From contig MGWK01000007.1 of the NCBI GenBank assembly GCA_001800975.1, positions 62,001-126,000 of the forward strand: a DNA stretch of 64,000 bases, read 5' to 3'. Source of the DNA: Flavobacteria bacterium RIFCSPLOWO2_12_FULL_35_11 (GTDB lineage: Bacteria > Bacteroidota > Bacteroidia > Flavobacteriales > Flavobacteriaceae). The notes below the pieces were generated by a model that did not search any database, had not been told where the DNA came from, and saw only the letters and a program-made list of their open reading frames with translations. Position numbers and translations under genes: made by a program. Shown here piece by piece: positions 1 to 56,362 of this stretch; positions within the stretch are counted from its first letter, which is position 1, and every line of letters begins with the position of its first letter.

Positions 1-1981
1 AATTTTTAGTCATGTACCAAGTGAATGGTCTAATTTGTATGAAGCAGGTTTGTTTACTGAGTTTATGGAACAACGTGCCCCAGGACATACAGCGTTGGAT
101 GGAAAGATTTATGAAAAAGGAATGTTGGATTTTAAACAAGATATTCAAGAAAGGTTAAATAAACTCGATTTTTTAAACGATCCTGAAGCAACCGATAAAA
201 AAGAACAGTTAGATGGTATGGCAATTTCTTGTGATGCTGCTATTATTTTTGCAGAACGACATGCAGATTTTGCAGAGGAATTGGCTTCAAAAGAAAATGA
301 TATCCAACGAAAAAAAGAGTTATTAAAAATTGCAGAAGTTTGTCGCTGGGTGCCTGCAAATGCTCCAAGAAATTTTCATGAAGCTATTCAAATGTATTGG
401 TTTGTTCATTTAGGAACCATTACTGAATTAAATGGTTGGGATGCTATGAATCCTGGTCATTTTGATCAACATTTAACACCTTTTTACGAAAAGGAATTAT
501 TAGAAGGAACCTTAAATAAAGAAGAAGCAAAGGAATTATTAAGCTGTTTTTGGATTAAGGTAAACAATCATCCAGCCCCTCCAAAAGTTGGAATTACAGC
601 CAAAGAAAGTGGAACGTATAATGATTTTACAAATATTAACATTGGTGGCGTAAAAAAAGATGGCTCTAATGGTGTAAGTGAGGTTTCGTACATAATGTTA
701 GAGATTGTAGAGGAATTGCACGTACTTCAACCTGGAAATTCGGTGCACATCAGTTCCAAAACACCAGATCGTTTTTTAAAGGAAGCATGTAAAGTAATTC
801 GCCAAGGGCACGGCTATCCTTCTATTTTTAATCCAGATATTTATATTCAGGAAATGTTACGACAAGGAAAAACATTGGAAGATGCTAGAGAAGGTGGTTG
901 CAGTGGTTGTATTGAAGTTGGTGCTTTTGGGAAAGAAGCCTACATTTTAACAGGCTATTTAAATGTTCCAAAAATTATTGAAATTACATTGAATAATGGA
1001 ATTAATCCAGTTACTGGTAAACAAGTAAGTGTTAAAACTGGAGATCCAAGAGATTTTAAAACGTATGAAGAATTGTATGATGCATTCCTAAAACAGCTGA
1101 ATTACATAGTAAACCAGAAGGTTTTAGTAAGTAATTATATTGATAGAATGTTTGCAAAATACAGTCCAGCAACATTTTTATCAGTAGTAATTGAAGATTG
1201 TATCACAAAAGGAAAAGATTACTATAATGGCGGACCTAGATACAATACAAATTACATCCAATGTACAGGTTTGGGAACGGTGACAGATAGTTTGTCGGTT
1301 TTAAAGAAACACGTTTTTGAAGACAAAACTTTTTCAATGAACACGCTTTTAAATGCAGTTGCCAATAATTTTGTAGGTGAGGAAATTTTAAGGCAAACTA
1401 TTATCAATAATACGCCATTCTATGGAAATGATGATGATTATGCCGATGACATTGCGTTGCAAGTGTATAATAATTTGTTTGATGCCATTGATGGTAAACC
1501 AAATATAAAAGGCGAAACTTTTCATTTAAATATGTTATCTACAACTTGCCACGTATATTTTGGAAAAGTAATGGGAGCAACACCTAATGGACGTTTGGCG
1601 CAAAAATCAATTTCTGATGGAACTTCACCATCACATGGTTGTGATGTTAATGGGCCTTCAGCAGTTATTAAATCATTGTCTAAAATTGATCAGGTAAAAT
1701 CGGGTGGAACTTTGTTAAATCAACGTTTTTTACCAAGTTTATTAAAACGAGATGAAGATATTATGAAGTTAGGACAATTGGTTAAAAGTTATTTTGCCTT
1801 GGGAGGACATCATATTCAATTTAATATTGTAGATACTGCTACTTTATATGCTGCACAGGAAAATCCAGAAGATTATAAAGATTTATTGGTGCGTATGGCT
1901 GGTTATAGTGATTATTTCAACGATATGAATATCGATTTACAGCAAGAAGTTATTGAAAGAACAGAAAATGAATCGTTTTAA
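1..1981 (+). CDS. hypD: trans-4-hydroxy-L-proline dehydratase (glycyl radical enzyme), 5' end outside window
   Basis: Dehydrates trans-4-hydroxy-L-proline to 1-pyrroline-5-carboxylate by oxygen-sensitive radical chemistry in the cytoplasm. The frame is open from base 2, so the gene begins upstream of the window; the TTG at 35 is an internal codon. Counting that codon as residue 1, the thiyl cysteine and base glutamate are C292 and E294 (GCIEV), the glycyl radical site is G623 (RMAGYSDYF), and S192, D197, F198, D136 and H18 occur where substrate-pocket residues of Clostridioides difficile HypD are expected. As I recall the C. difficile enzyme (C434, G765, S334), the spacings of 331 and 100 residues match exactly. 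About 130 N-terminal residues are missing. The stop abuts the activase ATG, so the two are one operon. No pyrroline-5-carboxylate reductase is visible. Calling it simply pyruvate formate-lyase would be wrong. Confidence 0.9.
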   Translation, partial: IFSHVPSEWSNLYEAGLFTEFMEQRAPGHTALDGKIYEKGMLDFKQDIQERLNKLDFLNDPEATDKKEQLDGMAISCDAAIIFAERHADFAEELASKENDIQRKKELLKIAEVCRWVPANAPRNFHEAIQMYWFVHLGTITELNGWDAMNPGHFDQHLTPFYEKELLEGTLNKEEAKELLSCFWIKVNNHPAPPKVGITAKESGTYNDFTNINIGGVKKDGSNGVSEVSYIMLEIVEELHVLQPGNSVHISSKTPDRFLKEACKVIRQGHGYPSIFNPDIYIQEMLRQGKTLEDAREGGCSGCIEVGAFGKEAYILTGYLNVPKIIEITLNNGINPVTGKQVSVKTGDPRDFKTYEELYDAFLKQLNYIVNQKVLVSNYIDRMFAKYSPATFLSVVIEDCITKGKDYYNGGPRYNTNYIQCTGLGTVTDSLSVLKKHVFEDKTFSMNTLLNAVANNFVGEEILRQTIINNTPFYGNDDDYADDIALQVYNNLFDAIDGKPNIKGETFHLNMLSTTCHVYFGKVMGATPNGRLAQKSISDGTSPSHGCDVNGPSAVIKSLSKIDQVKSGGTLLNQRFLPSLLKRDEDIMKLGQLVKSYFALGGHHIQFNIVDTATLYAAQENPEDYKDLLVRMAGYSDYFNDMNIDLQQEVIERTENESF

Positions 1982-2890
1982 ATGAGTACAGGTTTAATTT
2001 TTGATATTAAAAAATTCGCTATTAACGATGGACCAGGAATTCGTTTAACAGTATTTTTTAAAGGTTGCAATTTACAATGTAAATGGTGTCATAATCCAGA
2101 AAGTATGTCGCCAAAAGTGCAGAAAATGTACAATGCTAAAAAGTGTATTGGTGCCGTAAAATGTATTGAAAACTGTCCTAATAATGCATTAGAGTTAACT
2201 GAAAACGGAATAGTTACCAATTATGATATTTGTAATTTATGTGGAAAATGTGCTGAGGTTTGTCCAACCAAAGCCTTTGAAATGTTAGGGCAAAATATTT
2301 CAATAAATGATTTAATGAAAAAAATTGATAATGAAGCAATTTTCTTTGATCAGTCTGGTGGAGGAGTTACGTTTTCAGGTGGAGAGCCTTTAATGCATTC
2401 AGAATATTTGTTAGAAGCCTTAAAAGAATGTGGAAAAAGAATATATCACAGAGTTGTGGACACAACTGCATTTTCAAAATTAGAAACGGTATTGGAAATA
2501 GCAAAACATACCGAACTTTTTTTGATTGATTTAAAAGTGATGGATTCCGAAAAACATAAAGAATTTACAGGAGTTAGTAATGAGAAAATTCTTTCAAATA
2601 TTGTGGAATTGGCAAAAACGAATTGTGAAATCACTTTTAGAATGCCATTAATAAAAGGTGTAAATACATCTGAAGTGAATATTGAAAAAACTGCTATTTT
2701 TATGAATTCATTAGTTGGAAATAGAGACACTATAAATTTGTTGCCTTATCATAAAATAGCTGAGAACAAGCATATAAAATTAGGAGCTTCAAACAAATTT
2801 ATTGAGTTTGAAACTCCTAATAATGATGAGGTATTGAAGATTATTTCAATTTTTAAAAATTATGAGATCAATGCTACAATTGGTGGTTAA
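1982..2890 (+). CDS. hypE: glycyl radical enzyme activase (radical SAM), partner of the hydroxyproline dehydratase
   Basis: Radical SAM protein that installs the glycyl radical on its partner using S-adenosylmethionine and a reduced 4Fe-4S cluster. The SAM cluster motif is C29-x3-C33-x2-C36 in GCNLQCKWCHNPE. An inserted bacterial-ferredoxin-type region follows, with cysteines near 54, 60, 64 and 83, 86, 89, 93, as in activases of the dehydratase-type glycyl radical enzymes rather than the short PFL activase. At 302 residues the length is normal. The ATG follows the dehydratase stop codon with no gap. The symbol follows Clostridium usage and must not be confused with the hydrogenase maturation gene hypE. 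Confidence 0.88.
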   Translation: MSTGLIFDIKKFAINDGPGIRLTVFFKGCNLQCKWCHNPESMSPKVQKMYNAKKCIGAVKCIENCPNNALELTENGIVTNYDICNLCGKCAEVCPTKAFEMLGQNISINDLMKKIDNEAIFFDQSGGGVTFSGGEPLMHSEYLLEALKECGKRIYHRVVDTTAFSKLETVLEIAKHTELFLIDLKVMDSEKHKEFTGVSNEKILSNIVELAKTNCEITFRMPLIKGVNTSEVNIEKTAIFMNSLVGNRDTINLLPYHKIAENKHIKLGASNKFIEFETPNNDEVLKIISIFKNYEINATIGG

Positions 2891-53711: not shown

Positions 53712-53891
53712 CACACCCCCAAAATTTAGGGGTGTGTTGTCATATATTCTATATTTAAAAACACCACCCCCTAAAAACTAGGGTAGAAATCTTAATAAAC
53801 TTCAAAATATTTTGAATACCCCATAAAAAAATGGGGGTAAATTAAAAATATTCATAAAAATAACAGATACACCCCATTAAAATTTGGGGGT
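53712..53891. promoter_or_regulatory. array of four evenly spaced ACCCC-N-GGGGT palindromes upstream of glnB-amtB
   Basis: Sites: 53715-53733 (ACCCC-N9-GGGGT, part of an 8-bp arm CACACCCC/GGGGTGTG), 53766-53784 (ACCCC-N9-AGGGT), 53818-53838 and 53871-53891 (both ACCCC-N11-GGGGT). Centres are at 53724, 53775, 53828 and 53881, so spacings are 51, 53 and 53 bases, close to five helical turns. Spacers are A/T-only or nearly so. The last site includes the TTTG that serves as the -33 element. The flanking 53642-53711 has no gene. The regulator is unknown. Confidence 0.8.
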
Positions 53892-53914
53892 AAGGAATTA
53901 TATATATATTTTTG
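53883..53914 (+). promoter_or_regulatory. glnB-amtB promoter
   Basis: TTTG at 53883-53886 and TATTTTTG at 53907-53914, 20 bases apart, match the Bacteroidetes -33/-7 pattern on both elements. Transcription should start near 53920, with the glnB ATG at 53945. Confidence 0.65.
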
Positions 53915-53944
53915 ACCCGAAATCAATCAAAAAATCAATTTATT

Positions 53945-54283
53945 ATGAAGAAAATTGAAGCAATTATCAGAAAATCAAAATTTGATGAAGTAAAAGAAGC
54001 CCTGCATCGAATTGAAGTCAACTTTTTTAGCTACTGGGATGTAACGGGAGTTGGAAATGAAAAGGAGGGGCATGTGTATCGCGGCGTGGGTTATAGCACT
54101 TCCGACATTCAGCGCAGATTTTTATCCATTGTTGTTTCCGATCCATTTTTGGACAGAACCGTTGAGGCAATTCTTACAGCGGCCTTTACCGGAGTTACCG
54201 GAGATGGTAAAATATTTGTTTCGGATGTTGAAGAAGCATATAGAATCAGAACTAAAGAAACGGGTGCCGACTCATTAAAATAA
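53945..54283 (+). CDS. glnB: PII nitrogen regulatory protein
   Basis: Small trimeric signal protein that reads 2-oxoglutarate and ATP/ADP and controls ammonium transport. The C-terminal signature TGVTGDGKIFVSDVEEAYRIRT is clear in two parts (residues 82-92 and 93-103). The T-loop carries a tyrosine at residue 50 (RGVGY), the position uridylylated in E. coli GlnB (Y51), but its surroundings (GYSTSDIQRRFL) differ from the canonical loop. The ATG at 53945 gives 112 residues, exactly the usual length; an upstream TTG lies in the promoter. Pairing with amtB suggests a GlnK role. Confidence 0.93.
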   Translation: MKKIEAIIRKSKFDEVKEALHRIEVNFFSYWDVTGVGNEKEGHVYRGVGYSTSDIQRRFLSIVVSDPFLDRTVEAILTAAFTGVTGDGKIFVSDVEEAYRIRTKETGADSLK

Positions 54284-54305: not shown

Positions 54306-55544
54306 ATGGAAAATACACTATTTACGATTAACAATGTTTGGATGATGATGTGCACTGCACTCGTATTTTTGATGCACTTGGGCTTCTCATTGTTAGAAAT
54401 TGGGTTAACCAGACAAAAAAACACCATTAATATTTTATTTAAAAACGTATTTATTCTTTCGGTTGGCGTGGTACTTTATGCTTTGGTCGGATTTAATTTA
54501 ATGTATCCGGGCTCATTTATCTACGGTATTTTGCCCGATCATTTTTTCTCTTTATTCGGACTGACAGTGCCTGAAAACGGATTAACTTCAGAATACAATG
54601 TCGGATATACTTACTGGACTGACTTTTTATTTCAGGGAATGTTTGCCGCTACCGCAGCAACCATCGTTTCTGGTGCAGTTGCTGAACGCGTAAAATTGGG
54701 TTCATTTATGATTTTTACCATTTTTTATGTCGGACTTGTTTATCCAATCACTGGATCCTGGAAATGGGGTGGAGGCTGGTTAAATGACCTTGGGTTTTAT
54801 GATTTTGCCGGTTCAACTTTGGTGCATTCTGTTGGCGGCTGGGCTGCATTTATCGCTGTTTGGTTATTGGGAGCACGAATTGGGAAATTTAATAAAGATG
54901 GTTCTGTTGGCGCAATTCCCGGCCATAGTATTCCGTTGGCAACTGCGGGTGTGTTAATTTTATGGTTGGGCTGGTTCGGATTTAACGGAGGTTCGGTGCT
55001 TTCTGCAGATCCAGGTAAAACTTCCCTGGTGTTGGTAACAACCTGTTTGGCCGCAGCATCAGGTGGATTGAGCGCATTATTGGTGTCCTTATTCAGAAAC
55101 AAACAATATGATTTATCGATGTTCCTAAATGGATTGCTTGGCGGTTTGGTTGGGATTACGGCTGGAGCCGATATGATGAGCGTCACCGACTCCATTGTTA
55201 TTGGAATTATCGCAGGTATCCTGATTGTTTTGGGTGTTGGATTTGTGGACAAATTAAAACTCGACGATCCTGTTGGTGCAATTCCGGTTCATTTAATTTG
55301 TGGAATTTGGGGAACATTGGCTGTGGGAATTTTTGGTGAAATGGCAAGTTTGGAGCAATTGGGCAAACAAGCCATAGGCGTTGTTGCAATCGCAGCATTT
55401 TGTATCACATTTGCTTTCATCATATTAATTATTTTAAAGAAAACCGTTGGAATTAGGGTTTCTGAGGAAGAAGAGCAAGAAGGATTGGATATTCACGAAC
55501 ATGGAATGGATGCCTACCCAGATTTTCGTTTAAACCAACATTAA
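54306..55544 (+). CDS. amtB: ammonium transporter AmtB
   Basis: Eleven-helix trimeric inner-membrane ammonium channel. The twin pore histidines fall in STLVHSVGGWAAF and VHLICGIWGTLAVG, and the family signature DFAGSTLVH includes the structural Asp. WGGGWLNDLGFYDF is the usual block before it. The 412-residue length is normal. It starts 22 bases after glnB and shares its promoter. The cytoplasmic tail (SEEEEQEGLDIHEHGMDAYP) is acidic. Confidence 0.95.
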   Translation: MENTLFTINNVWMMMCTALVFLMHLGFSLLEIGLTRQKNTINILFKNVFILSVGVVLYALVGFNLMYPGSFIYGILPDHFFSLFGLTVPENGLTSEYNVGYTYWTDFLFQGMFAATAATIVSGAVAERVKLGSFMIFTIFYVGLVYPITGSWKWGGGWLNDLGFYDFAGSTLVHSVGGWAAFIAVWLLGARIGKFNKDGSVGAIPGHSIPLATAGVLILWLGWFGFNGGSVLSADPGKTSLVLVTTCLAAASGGLSALLVSLFRNKQYDLSMFLNGLLGGLVGITAGADMMSVTDSIVIGIIAGILIVLGVGFVDKLKLDDPVGAIPVHLICGIWGTLAVGIFGEMASLEQLGKQAIGVVAIAAFCITFAFIILIILKKTVGIRVSEEEEQEGLDIHEHGMDAYPDFRLNQH

Positions 55545-55678: not shown

Positions 55679-56362
55679 ATGATGAAAACAATTAAAAGAA
55701 CATTATTATTACTGGTTGCCATATGCTCATTAAGTCCGATGAATGCACAAGAAGAACCAAAGACCAAATTTGATGTGGGTGTGGATTTTGCCAGCCGATA
55801 TGTGTGGAGAGGTCTCGAATTTTCCGATTCGCCGGCAGTGCAGCCTTATGCAGAACTAACCTCGGGCAATTTCACGCTTGGCGCCTGGGCTTCTTATGAA
55901 ACCGGCGGGCAAGTGGTTGGACAAGAATTGGATTTGTATGCAAGTTATGCTTTTGGACCCGTTTCATTGGGATTCATTGATTATGCATTTCCCGTAGACG
56001 GCGCTTCAGACGGGTATTTTAAAATGCAAAATCACGTTGGGGAAGCAACATTAAGTTTTGACGGTGTTGAAAAATTTCCTTTAACGTTTTTGTTGGGTGT
56101 CAATGTTTACAATGATGATAACAATTCAATTTATACTGAATTGGGTTACCCTTTCAAAATTGGAGAAACAGAAATGAAACCTTTTATTGGGGCAGGAAAT
56201 GAAATATATACCACAGACGGGGAATATAAAGTTTCCAACTTTGGACTTTCAGCCTCGAAAGCCATTAAAATTACAGACGCATTTAGTTTAGGCGTATCCG
56301 CATCAGCCATTTTTAATCCGGATACAGATGATGCTTACTTGGTATTTGTGATTTCTTTATAA
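55679..56362 (+). CDS. TorF-family putative porin
   Basis: Signal peptide (residues 1-24, ending MNAQ) and a beta-barrel of about 200 residues beginning FDVGVDFASRYVWRGLEFSD, the hallmark of the TorF/gcw_chp group. The last residues (DAYLVFVISL) form a terminal strand. It is placed behind amtB, so outer-membrane passage of a nitrogen source is plausible but unproven. It has its own terminator. Confidence 0.85.
   Translation: MMKTIKRTLLLLVAICSLSPMNAQEEPKTKFDVGVDFASRYVWRGLEFSDSPAVQPYAELTSGNFTLGAWASYETGGQVVGQELDLYASYAFGPVSLGFIDYAFPVDGASDGYFKMQNHVGEATLSFDGVEKFPLTFLLGVNVYNDDNNSIYTELGYPFKIGETEMKPFIGAGNEIYTTDGEYKVSNFGLSASKAIKITDAFSLGVSASAIFNPDTDDAYLVFVISL

What the first reader, a model, noticed from the sequence alone, without database searches (positions are those of the whole stretch)
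53712..53914. Four helically phased ACCCC-GGGGT palindromes control the PII-ammonium transporter promoter
Seen: four palindromes (ACCCC-N9 or N11-GGGGT; one arm is AGGGT) with centres at 53724, 53775, 53828 and 53881, spaced 51-53 bases, about five DNA turns each. The most proximal includes the TTTG -33 element of a TTTG-N20-TATTTTTG promoter for glnB-amtB. Same-face spacing of dimer sites suggests a cooperating regulator that loops or stacks on DNA, acting on nitrogen uptake. Bacteroidetes lack the standard NtrC/sigma-54 control of these genes in many lineages, and I know of no described regulator with this operator.
Basis: partly seen in the sequence, partly recalled or inferred. Interest (0 to 1): 0.78.

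Follow-up and report, generated by a model that had tools for sequence, protein, structure and literature searches.

The report
Phased nitrogen-control sites in Flavobacteriaceae
A small palindromic DNA signal, repeated every five turns of the double helix, sits in front of ammonium-uptake and glutamine-making genes in many members of a large family of marine bacteria, which points to a nitrogen-control protein that has not yet been identified.

Summary
Four ACCCY-N9/11-RGGGT palindromes (centres 53724, 53775, 53828, 53881) precede glnB(PII)-amtB. The strict pattern occurs at 9 places in the 3.56 Mb genome; 4 are this array. The genus is Lutibacter.

The element is conserved and directional. 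Of 80 named Flavobacteriaceae amtB loci, 63 carry at least one pair of sites; the 76 pairs are spaced 52.7 +- 0.67 bp. Of 68 proximal pairs, 45 have a TAnnTTTG -7 box within 70 bp, and in 44 of these it lies 31.5-34.5 bp away; 23 have no strict box. Sites also precede type III glutamine synthetase in 50 of 54 loci, often 43-44.5 bp from the -7 box, one helical turn further out. A third element, TAAAAAT, lies between the last two sites.

Best reading: a dimeric, promoter-proximal activator of nitrogen assimilation, with extra dimers on the same helix face. The regulator was not found: two Lrp/AsnC candidates are absent from genomes that keep the sites; Crp and GerE gave none. sigma-54/NtrC, NtcA, GlnR, terminator and RNA readings are not supported. 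No experiment was run.

The parts
53715..53733 (.). palindrome 1 (distal), centre 53724, about -195 from the predicted start
   Evidence: sequence; related promoters with this site have it 189-192.5 bp from the -7 G
53766..53784 (.). palindrome 2, centre 53775, about -144; right arm AGGGT
53818..53838 (.). palindrome 3, centre 53828, about -91; upstream member of the family-wide pair
53855..53861 (.). TAAAAAT element, about -64 to -58, between the last two palindromes; candidate contact for the RNA polymerase alpha subunit
   Evidence: position-specific conservation in 45 aligned promoters; its function is inference
53871..53891 (.). palindrome 4 (proximal), centre 53881, about -38; overlaps where a -33 box would lie
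53883..53886 (+).
   Evidence: 6 of 23 related promoters
53907..53914 (+). -7 box TATTTTTG (TAnnTTTG)
   Evidence: a box is present in 22 of 23 related promoters
53919..53919 (+). predicted transcription start, from the -12 to -5 position of TAnnTTTG in a Flavobacterium start-site map
   Evidence: passage of PMC9723704 seen; not measured here
53945..54283 (+). glnB/glnK-type PII protein, 112 aa
   Evidence: Pfam P-II, E 9.2e-23
54306..55544 (+). amtB ammonium transporter, 412 aa
   Evidence: Pfam Ammonium_transp, E 1.8e-115; NCBIfam amt above cut-off

Best explanation
The palindromes are operators of a dedicated nitrogen-assimilation activator of Flavobacteriaceae. A dimer binds each ACCCY-N8-12-RGGGT site, whose centre is nearly all A/T. 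The dimer at about -38 takes the place of a -33 box and helps the housekeeping RNA polymerase, which reads the -7 box TAnnTTTG, probably with its alpha subunit on the TAAAAAT tract at about -61. Further dimers 52.7 bp (five turns) upstream lie on the same helix face and add occupancy by contact or looping. At glutamine synthetase III the same site works one turn or more further out. SHOWN (by sequence): the sites, their conservation, spacing, polarity, the nitrogen gene set, the fixed distance to the -7 box. INFERRED: binding by a dimer, activation, cooperativity, response to low ammonium. UNKNOWN: the protein.
For: Pairs in 63 of 80 named loci, spacing 52.73 +- 0.67; 48 boxes found downstream of the 76 pairs, 45 of them at 31.5-34.5 bp, against 4 scattered boxes in the opposite direction. 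Counting only the 68 proximal pairs: 44 of 45 pairs that have a box, in 39 loci. Pair-spacing histogram: 63 pairs in the 50-60 bp bin against 0 for a reversed-arm control motif in the same 980 kb. GSIII: a site of score 9 or more in 50 of 54 loci; of 38 boxes (looser form TAnnTTYG) 30 fall at 43-44.5 (20), 53.5-54.5 (4), 33-33.5 (3) or 62.5-63.5 (3); in the GSII direction 6 of 8 boxes at 31.5-34.5. A degenerate -33 with a kept -7 and operator fits an activator. TAAAAAT conserved upstream of the proximal site. Three Aquimarina genomes that lack GSIII also lack the sites at glnB.
Against: No regulator found. Spacer length varies (N8-N12, mostly 9-11), unusual for a rigid dimer. 23 of 68 proximal pairs have no strict TAnnTTTG box. 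A repressor over the -33 region would also give a fixed proximal site. 17 of 80 loci lack a pair by the criteria (9 of these hold at least one site of score 9 or more in the upstream part of the locus, 8 do not, of which L136 is cut short). GSIII distances of 68.5 (2), 69, 16, 16.5, 37, 41.5 and 56.5 do not fit the phase. Sequences are related, so counts are not independent events. No expression data.
Confidence: 0.6

Rival explanations
1. The sites are operators of a repressor (AmtR- or GlnR-like in role) that blocks polymerase over the -33 region when nitrogen is plentiful, with upstream sites for looping.
For: The proximal site overlaps the -33 region in glnB promoters.
Against: At GSIII the site is most often 43-44.5 bp from the -7 G, beyond the -33 region, with phase kept (20 of 38 boxes); the -33 TTTG that a repressor would be expected to mask is mostly absent (6 of 23).
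Confidence: 0.22
2. The regulator is an Lrp/AsnC (FFRP) protein that wraps DNA over phased AT-centred sites; candidate A (G000:C65:39438-39899) or B (G000:C57:47136-47582).
For: In the 6 genomes compared, both are present at 69-75% identity in two Aquimarina with sites and absent (best match 41% or less) in three without sites at glnB and without GSIII. B lies near GSIII in 5 of 10 stretches read, which were chosen partly for that, and a B-like protein (64-71% identity) lies in 22 of 80 amtB loci.
Against: A is missing (best match 38-40%) from site-bearing G011, G023, G141 and G146, and is present in 4 genomes of genus g17 where no PII match was found. B is missing from site-bearing G005, G009, G011, G023, G141 and others.
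Confidence: 0.08
3. The palindromes are transcription terminators or RNA hairpins, not protein sites.
For: They can fold as short hairpins (-5.8 to -15.7 kcal/mol; z -4.0 for site 1, -1.1 to -2.2 for the others); two terminator-like matches on the minus strand against 0.2 in shuffles.
Against: No T run follows the stems on the + strand; no Rfam match at gathering score in the window apart from a tRNA; arms are held at fixed letters, and fifth bases are C/A in 11 of 83 sites and T/G in 19; fixed distance to the -7 box.
Confidence: 0.03
4. Intrinsic DNA curvature from phased A-tracts, with the GC arms incidental.
For: AT-rich centres and a TAAAAAT tract at helical intervals.
Against: The CCC and GGG arms reach information content 2.0, more than the AT centres (0.8-1.4); TAAAAAT itself reaches 1.85.
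Confidence: 0.04

Closest known systems
NtcA of cyanobacteria (Crp/Fnr family nitrogen activator; recalled)
   Same: Role: activates amt, glnB, glnA, glnN from a palindrome near -41.5, with a -10 box and no good -35.
   Different: Its GTA-N8-TAC site is in 0 of 23 glnB and 1 of 29 GSIII promoters; no Crp-type protein of this genome fits the presence pattern.
LuxR-type lux box (recalled: ACCTG-N10-CAGGT near -42.5)
   Same: Similar length and position of a 20-bp palindrome overlapping the -35 region.
   Different: Different arms, 0 of 23 and 0 of 29; the two full GerE response regulators of this genome had only 37-39% identity to the best Aquimarina proteins among the loci read.
NtrC/sigma-54 control of glnK-amtB
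   Same: Same target genes; several upstream dimer sites.
   Different: No strict -24/-12 promoter (0 of 23) and no NtrC site (0 of 23); a TAnnTTTG promoter instead.
GlnR/TnrA and AmtR of Gram-positive bacteria (recalled)
   Same: Control the same kind of genes.
   Different: GlnR/TnrA site in 0 of 23 glnB and 1 of 29 GSIII promoters; AmtR not tested.
Ammonium-responsive amtB-glnK-glnN-gltBD of Prevotella ruminicola (PMC5552732; passages only)
   Same: A like gene set responds strongly to ammonium in another Bacteroidota; no regulator named in the passages seen.
   Different: Different order; the passages disagree on direction (limiting versus non-limiting ammonium); its promoters were not examined here.

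Membership tests
sigma-54/NtrC-controlled promoter | -24/-12 promoter TGGCAY-N5-TTGCW | tested here: not met
   0 of 23 glnB and 0 of 29 GSIII promoters; the loose GG-N10-GC in 6 of 23 and 2 of 29, not in this window's + strand
sigma-54/NtrC-controlled promoter | NtrC site GCACY-N3-7-RGTGC | tested here: not met
   0 of 23 and 0 of 29 (consensus recalled)
Crp/Fnr family operator (CRP, FNR, NtcA) | family-type half sites | tested here: not met
   CRP 0, FNR 0, NtcA 0 of 23 glnB promoters; 0, 0 and 1 of 29 GSIII promoters
Crp/Fnr family operator (CRP, FNR, NtcA) | a family member present where sites are, absent where they are lost | tested here: not met
   none of the 8 own-genome cNMP-binding proteins was clean across 7 genomes; 5 of 76 matches (4 in G136, 1 in G138) were not read
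Lrp/AsnC regulator | member present in all site-bearing genomes and absent where sites are lost | tested here: not met
   A and B fit 6 genomes but each fails in several site-bearing genomes of 58
LuxR/NarL (GerE) regulator | conserved GerE protein with the right presence pattern | tested here: inconclusive
   no close counterpart among 30 loci read; the remaining matches were not fetched
Class II-type sigma-A activator architecture | operator overlapping the -33/-35 region at fixed distance from the -7/-10 box | tested here: met
   44 of the 45 proximal pairs that have a box within 70 bp; 23 of 68 have no strict box
Class II-type sigma-A activator architecture | loss of the site lowers transcription | not testable with these tools
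   needs reporter assays
Structured RNA / Rfam family | match at gathering score | tested here: not met
   only a tRNA in the window; best local matches E 0.14-0.75, below gathering

The most novel reading that the evidence does not exclude
Flavobacteriaceae control nitrogen assimilation with their own, undescribed activator that reads pairs (here a quartet) of ACCCY-N9-11-RGGGT dyads five helical turns apart, in place of NtrC/sigma-54 or NtcA, with a very small regulon: PII-Amt operons and glutamine synthetases.
Probability: 0.55. Interest if true: 0.72.

Novelty: new variant of a known kind. Interest (0 to 1): 0.62.

Why it matters
Flavobacteriaceae are major degraders of algal matter in the sea (established knowledge), and I found no account of how they switch nitrogen assimilation genes: nine paper searches that bear on nitrogen regulation (listings and starts of abstracts; open-licence PMC only) showed no described regulator of these genes in the family and not this operator. 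A sharply defined operator with a fixed geometry makes the question testable: the fragment can be used directly as bait, and the element predicts which genes belong to the regulon in many genera.

Tried and rejected
Regulator search. Presence patterns were compared between site-bearing genomes and three Aquimarina (G133-G135) with neither sites at glnB nor GSIII. cNMP-binding/Crp (71 of 76 matches read): no clean member. One of 192 aa (L300) had counterparts in G136 and G137 at 45-47% but not in G138; another (L302) in G138 only; two long cNMP-binding proteins (L253, L261) in G136 and G137 only, and the one checked is a CBS-DUF294 protein without a DNA-binding domain match. GerE (30 loci read): none. 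Lrp/AsnC: two of the four own members fitted 6 genomes, then failed on 58. Neighbours: beside glnB-amtB the only conserved regulator seen is a B-like Lrp/AsnC gene in 22 of 80 loci; near GSIII, a penicillinase-repressor-type (BlaI-like) gene in 3 of 10 stretches and B in 5. Families not searched: OmpR, LytTR, NtrC-type, TetR, MarR, XRE, MerR, LysR, AraC.

Wider regulon. A relaxed pattern in two genomes (the last rows were not listed) was screened by eye for AT centres and 14 stretches were read: 13 around candidate sites, one over the GSIII gene. In the own genome, apart from the array, GSIII and the terminator, one candidate is intergenic (beside an adenosylhomocysteinase gene); in G012 two are, one beside a MarR-type gene. 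No neighbour was shared between the two genomes. Sites with other mismatches, and listed sites with GC in the centre, were not read.

A covariance model was considered and not built, because the alignment did not place the variable spacer. Depth: 30 PII loci were read from a phylum draw (80 genomes, 53 with a match); the array appears only in the own genome; one same-family genome has a lone palindrome before glnB; the other 28 have no pair. One genome of another family in the order (L022) has sites 51 and 53 bp apart. gltBD control was considered because glutamate synthase lies near the operon in 32 of 80 loci (24 on the minus strand), but -7 boxes in that direction are few (4).

Full report
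The observation. In the 303-bp gap between crcB (CrcB family) and glnB, none of 20000 mononucleotide shuffles gave two or more strict sites. The strict pattern ACCCY-N8-11-RGGGT occurs at 9 places in the 3.56 Mb genome; four are this array. Of the other five, two are inside reading frames and three in gaps (a terminator-like hairpin, one with 8-bp inverted arms, one with a GC-containing centre). The reversed control pattern has 14 places, so the motif is not common in the genome; its clustering is what is unusual.

Conservation in the genus. In orthologous glnB promoters, 21 of 22 Lutibacter loci have a proximal site (score 8 or more) whose centre is 31.5-33.5 bp from the G of the -7 box, with further sites at about 86, 139 and 190 bp where present. 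Two to four sites are usual; some promoters show one.

Conservation in the family. 80 loci were kept of 566 relatives found in a capped scan. In their 980 kb, sites of score 9 or more number 202, against 77 for a reversed-arm control; pairs 50-60 bp apart number 63 against 0. With slightly wider criteria, 63 of 80 loci hold 76 pairs, spaced 52.73 bp (sd 0.67), five turns at 10.5 bp. Downstream of them, on the side facing glnB-amtB, 48 strict TAnnTTTG boxes were found, 45 at 31.5-34.5 bp; on the other side 4, scattered. Counting each array once, 68 proximal pairs: 45 have a box within 70 bp, 44 of them at 31.5-34.5 bp (39 loci), and 23 have no strict box. In several loci where no pair lies just before glnB (for example L112, L113, L142-L144, L149, L158, L162, L171) a pair lies 0.8-2.7 kb further upstream. 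Of the 17 loci without a pair, 9 hold at least one site of score 9 or more in the upstream part of the locus; L120, L121, L124, L127, L130, L136 (cut short), L137 and L145 do not.

A second target. Arrays lie between GSII and GSIII genes in several Lutibacter (families). Of 54 GSIII loci read (30 Lutibacter, 24 other genera), 50 have a site of score 9 or more within 300 bp (29 of 30 and 21 of 24). By the control density, about one would be expected by chance. In this genome GSIII (G000:C41) has one site, ACCCCTATTTTTTTAGGGGC, centre 44.5 bp from the -7 G. Using the looser box TAnnTTYG, 38 GSIII distances were found: 33-33.5 (3), 43-44.5 (20), 53.5-54.5 (4) and 62.5-63.5 (3), steps of roughly one turn, while 68.5 (2), 69, 16, 16.5, 37, 41.5 and 56.5 do not fit; in the GSII direction 6 of 8 lie at 31.5-34.5. 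The counts are of related sequences, so they are not independent events.

Anatomy. Aligned on the -7 box, 45 promoters show the CCC/GGG arms, the box, and a third element, TAAAAAT, 52 to 46 bp upstream of the box start (information content up to 1.85), between the last two palindromes. These promoters were chosen for having a strict box. In the window the element is 53855-53861. A start-site study of a flavobacterium places TAnnTTTG at -12 to -5 (PMC9723704, passages seen). That puts the start at 53919 and the sites at -38, -91, -144 and -195, with the A-tract at about -61. The -33 TTTG is not shared (6 of 23). An operator in place of a -33 box, kept in phase when moved out by whole turns, with an A-tract just upstream, where the polymerase alpha subunit usually binds beside such activators (knowledge of Crp-type class II promoters, recalled), is what an activator promoter looks like. 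This is inference from layout.

The regulon. A relaxed pattern in this genome and in G012 (the last rows not listed), screened by eye for AT centres, and 14 stretches read, left few intergenic AT-centred sites: in the own genome the glnB array, GSIII, a terminator-like hairpin and one beside an adenosylhomocysteinase gene; in G012 the array, GSIII and two others, one beside a MarR-type gene. No neighbour beyond glnB-amtB and GSIII was shared. The regulon therefore looks very small, but single sites with other mismatches would be missed.

The regulator. Three Aquimarina genomes have neither GSIII nor sites at glnB, while three other Aquimarina have GSIII and at least one site at glnB. This gave a presence test. 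Crp-type and GerE-type proteins gave no clean candidate among the matches read. Two Lrp/AsnC proteins fitted six genomes but are missing from genomes that keep the sites: A from G011, G023, G141 and G146; B from G005, G009, G011, G023, G141 and more. Both are rejected as the sole regulator. Many regulator families were not tested, and the three Aquimarina could have lost the sites while keeping the protein.

Known systems. In 23 glnB promoters, strict sigma-54, NtrC, NtcA, CRP, FNR, GlnR/TnrA and lux-box patterns were found in none (loose GG-N10-GC in 6), while the present motif in its strict form (N8-12) is in 17; in 29 GSIII promoters NtcA and GlnR/TnrA patterns occur once each and the present motif in 23. 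It works like an activator such as NtcA in role and position, but is not shown to be a member of any family. Paper searches showed no described nitrogen regulator or this operator in Flavobacteriaceae; this covers open-licence papers only, seen as listings and, for three papers, passages or an outline. A Prevotella study shows a like gene set responding to ammonium without naming a regulator in the passages I saw.

Verdict. A real, conserved, geometrically strict element before nitrogen assimilation genes in Flavobacteriaceae, most likely the operator of a promoter-proximal activator; regulator unknown.

Noticed in passing
window 53855-53861 and equivalent positions in L100-L179: TAAAAAT tract between the two proximal palindromes, nearly as conserved as the arms; could be an alpha-subunit contact or a second protein site.
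   Followed up: partly
L120, L121, L124, L127, L137: amtB loci of Aureibaculum and three Aquimarina without the sites near the operon; L121 keeps a TATATTTTTG box, so its control may have been rewired.
   Followed up: partly
L181 (same-family genome G104), 1424: A lone perfect palindrome inside a much longer inverted repeat just before glnB, more like a terminator or attenuator than an operator.
   Followed up: no
G000 contigs C3, C7:15976, C11, C21, C46, C60, C64, C76, C88: Two dispersed short palindromes, ACCCCTCTCAAGAGGGG and ACCCTTTCCAAAGGAAAGGG types, recur many times in this genome.
   Followed up: no
G000:C53:118569-119410 and C42:20058-20133: ACCCCAGCCCTAAAGGG repeated, several copies 59 bp apart; unexplained tandem element.
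   Followed up: no
L441-L445 (G149, G154, G139, G153, G156): An Lrp/AsnC gene lies about 13 kb from GSIII in a conserved block with a release factor, orotidine decarboxylase, AIR-synthase-like and methylmalonyl-CoA-mutase-like genes in five genomes of four genera, and a like gene is in 22 of 80 amtB loci.
   Followed up: partly
L253 and L261 (G000:C52): Two neighbouring cNMP-binding proteins; the one checked carries CBS and DUF294 nucleotidyltransferase domains. Counterparts were seen in G136 and G137 but not in the three Aquimarina without sites, nor in G138.
   Followed up: partly
window 2-2890: A pyruvate-formate-lyase-like glycyl radical enzyme, cut by the window edge, followed by a radical SAM protein that is probably its activating enzyme.
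   Followed up: partly
window 55679-56362: Outer-membrane porin-like gene after amtB (weak match to the TorF family, below cut-off).
   Followed up: partly
L436 (G012:C1:359200-361700), 1186: A lone ACCCTTTGAAAATAAGGG site in a gap beside a MarR-type regulator gene; not seen in the own genome.
   Followed up: no
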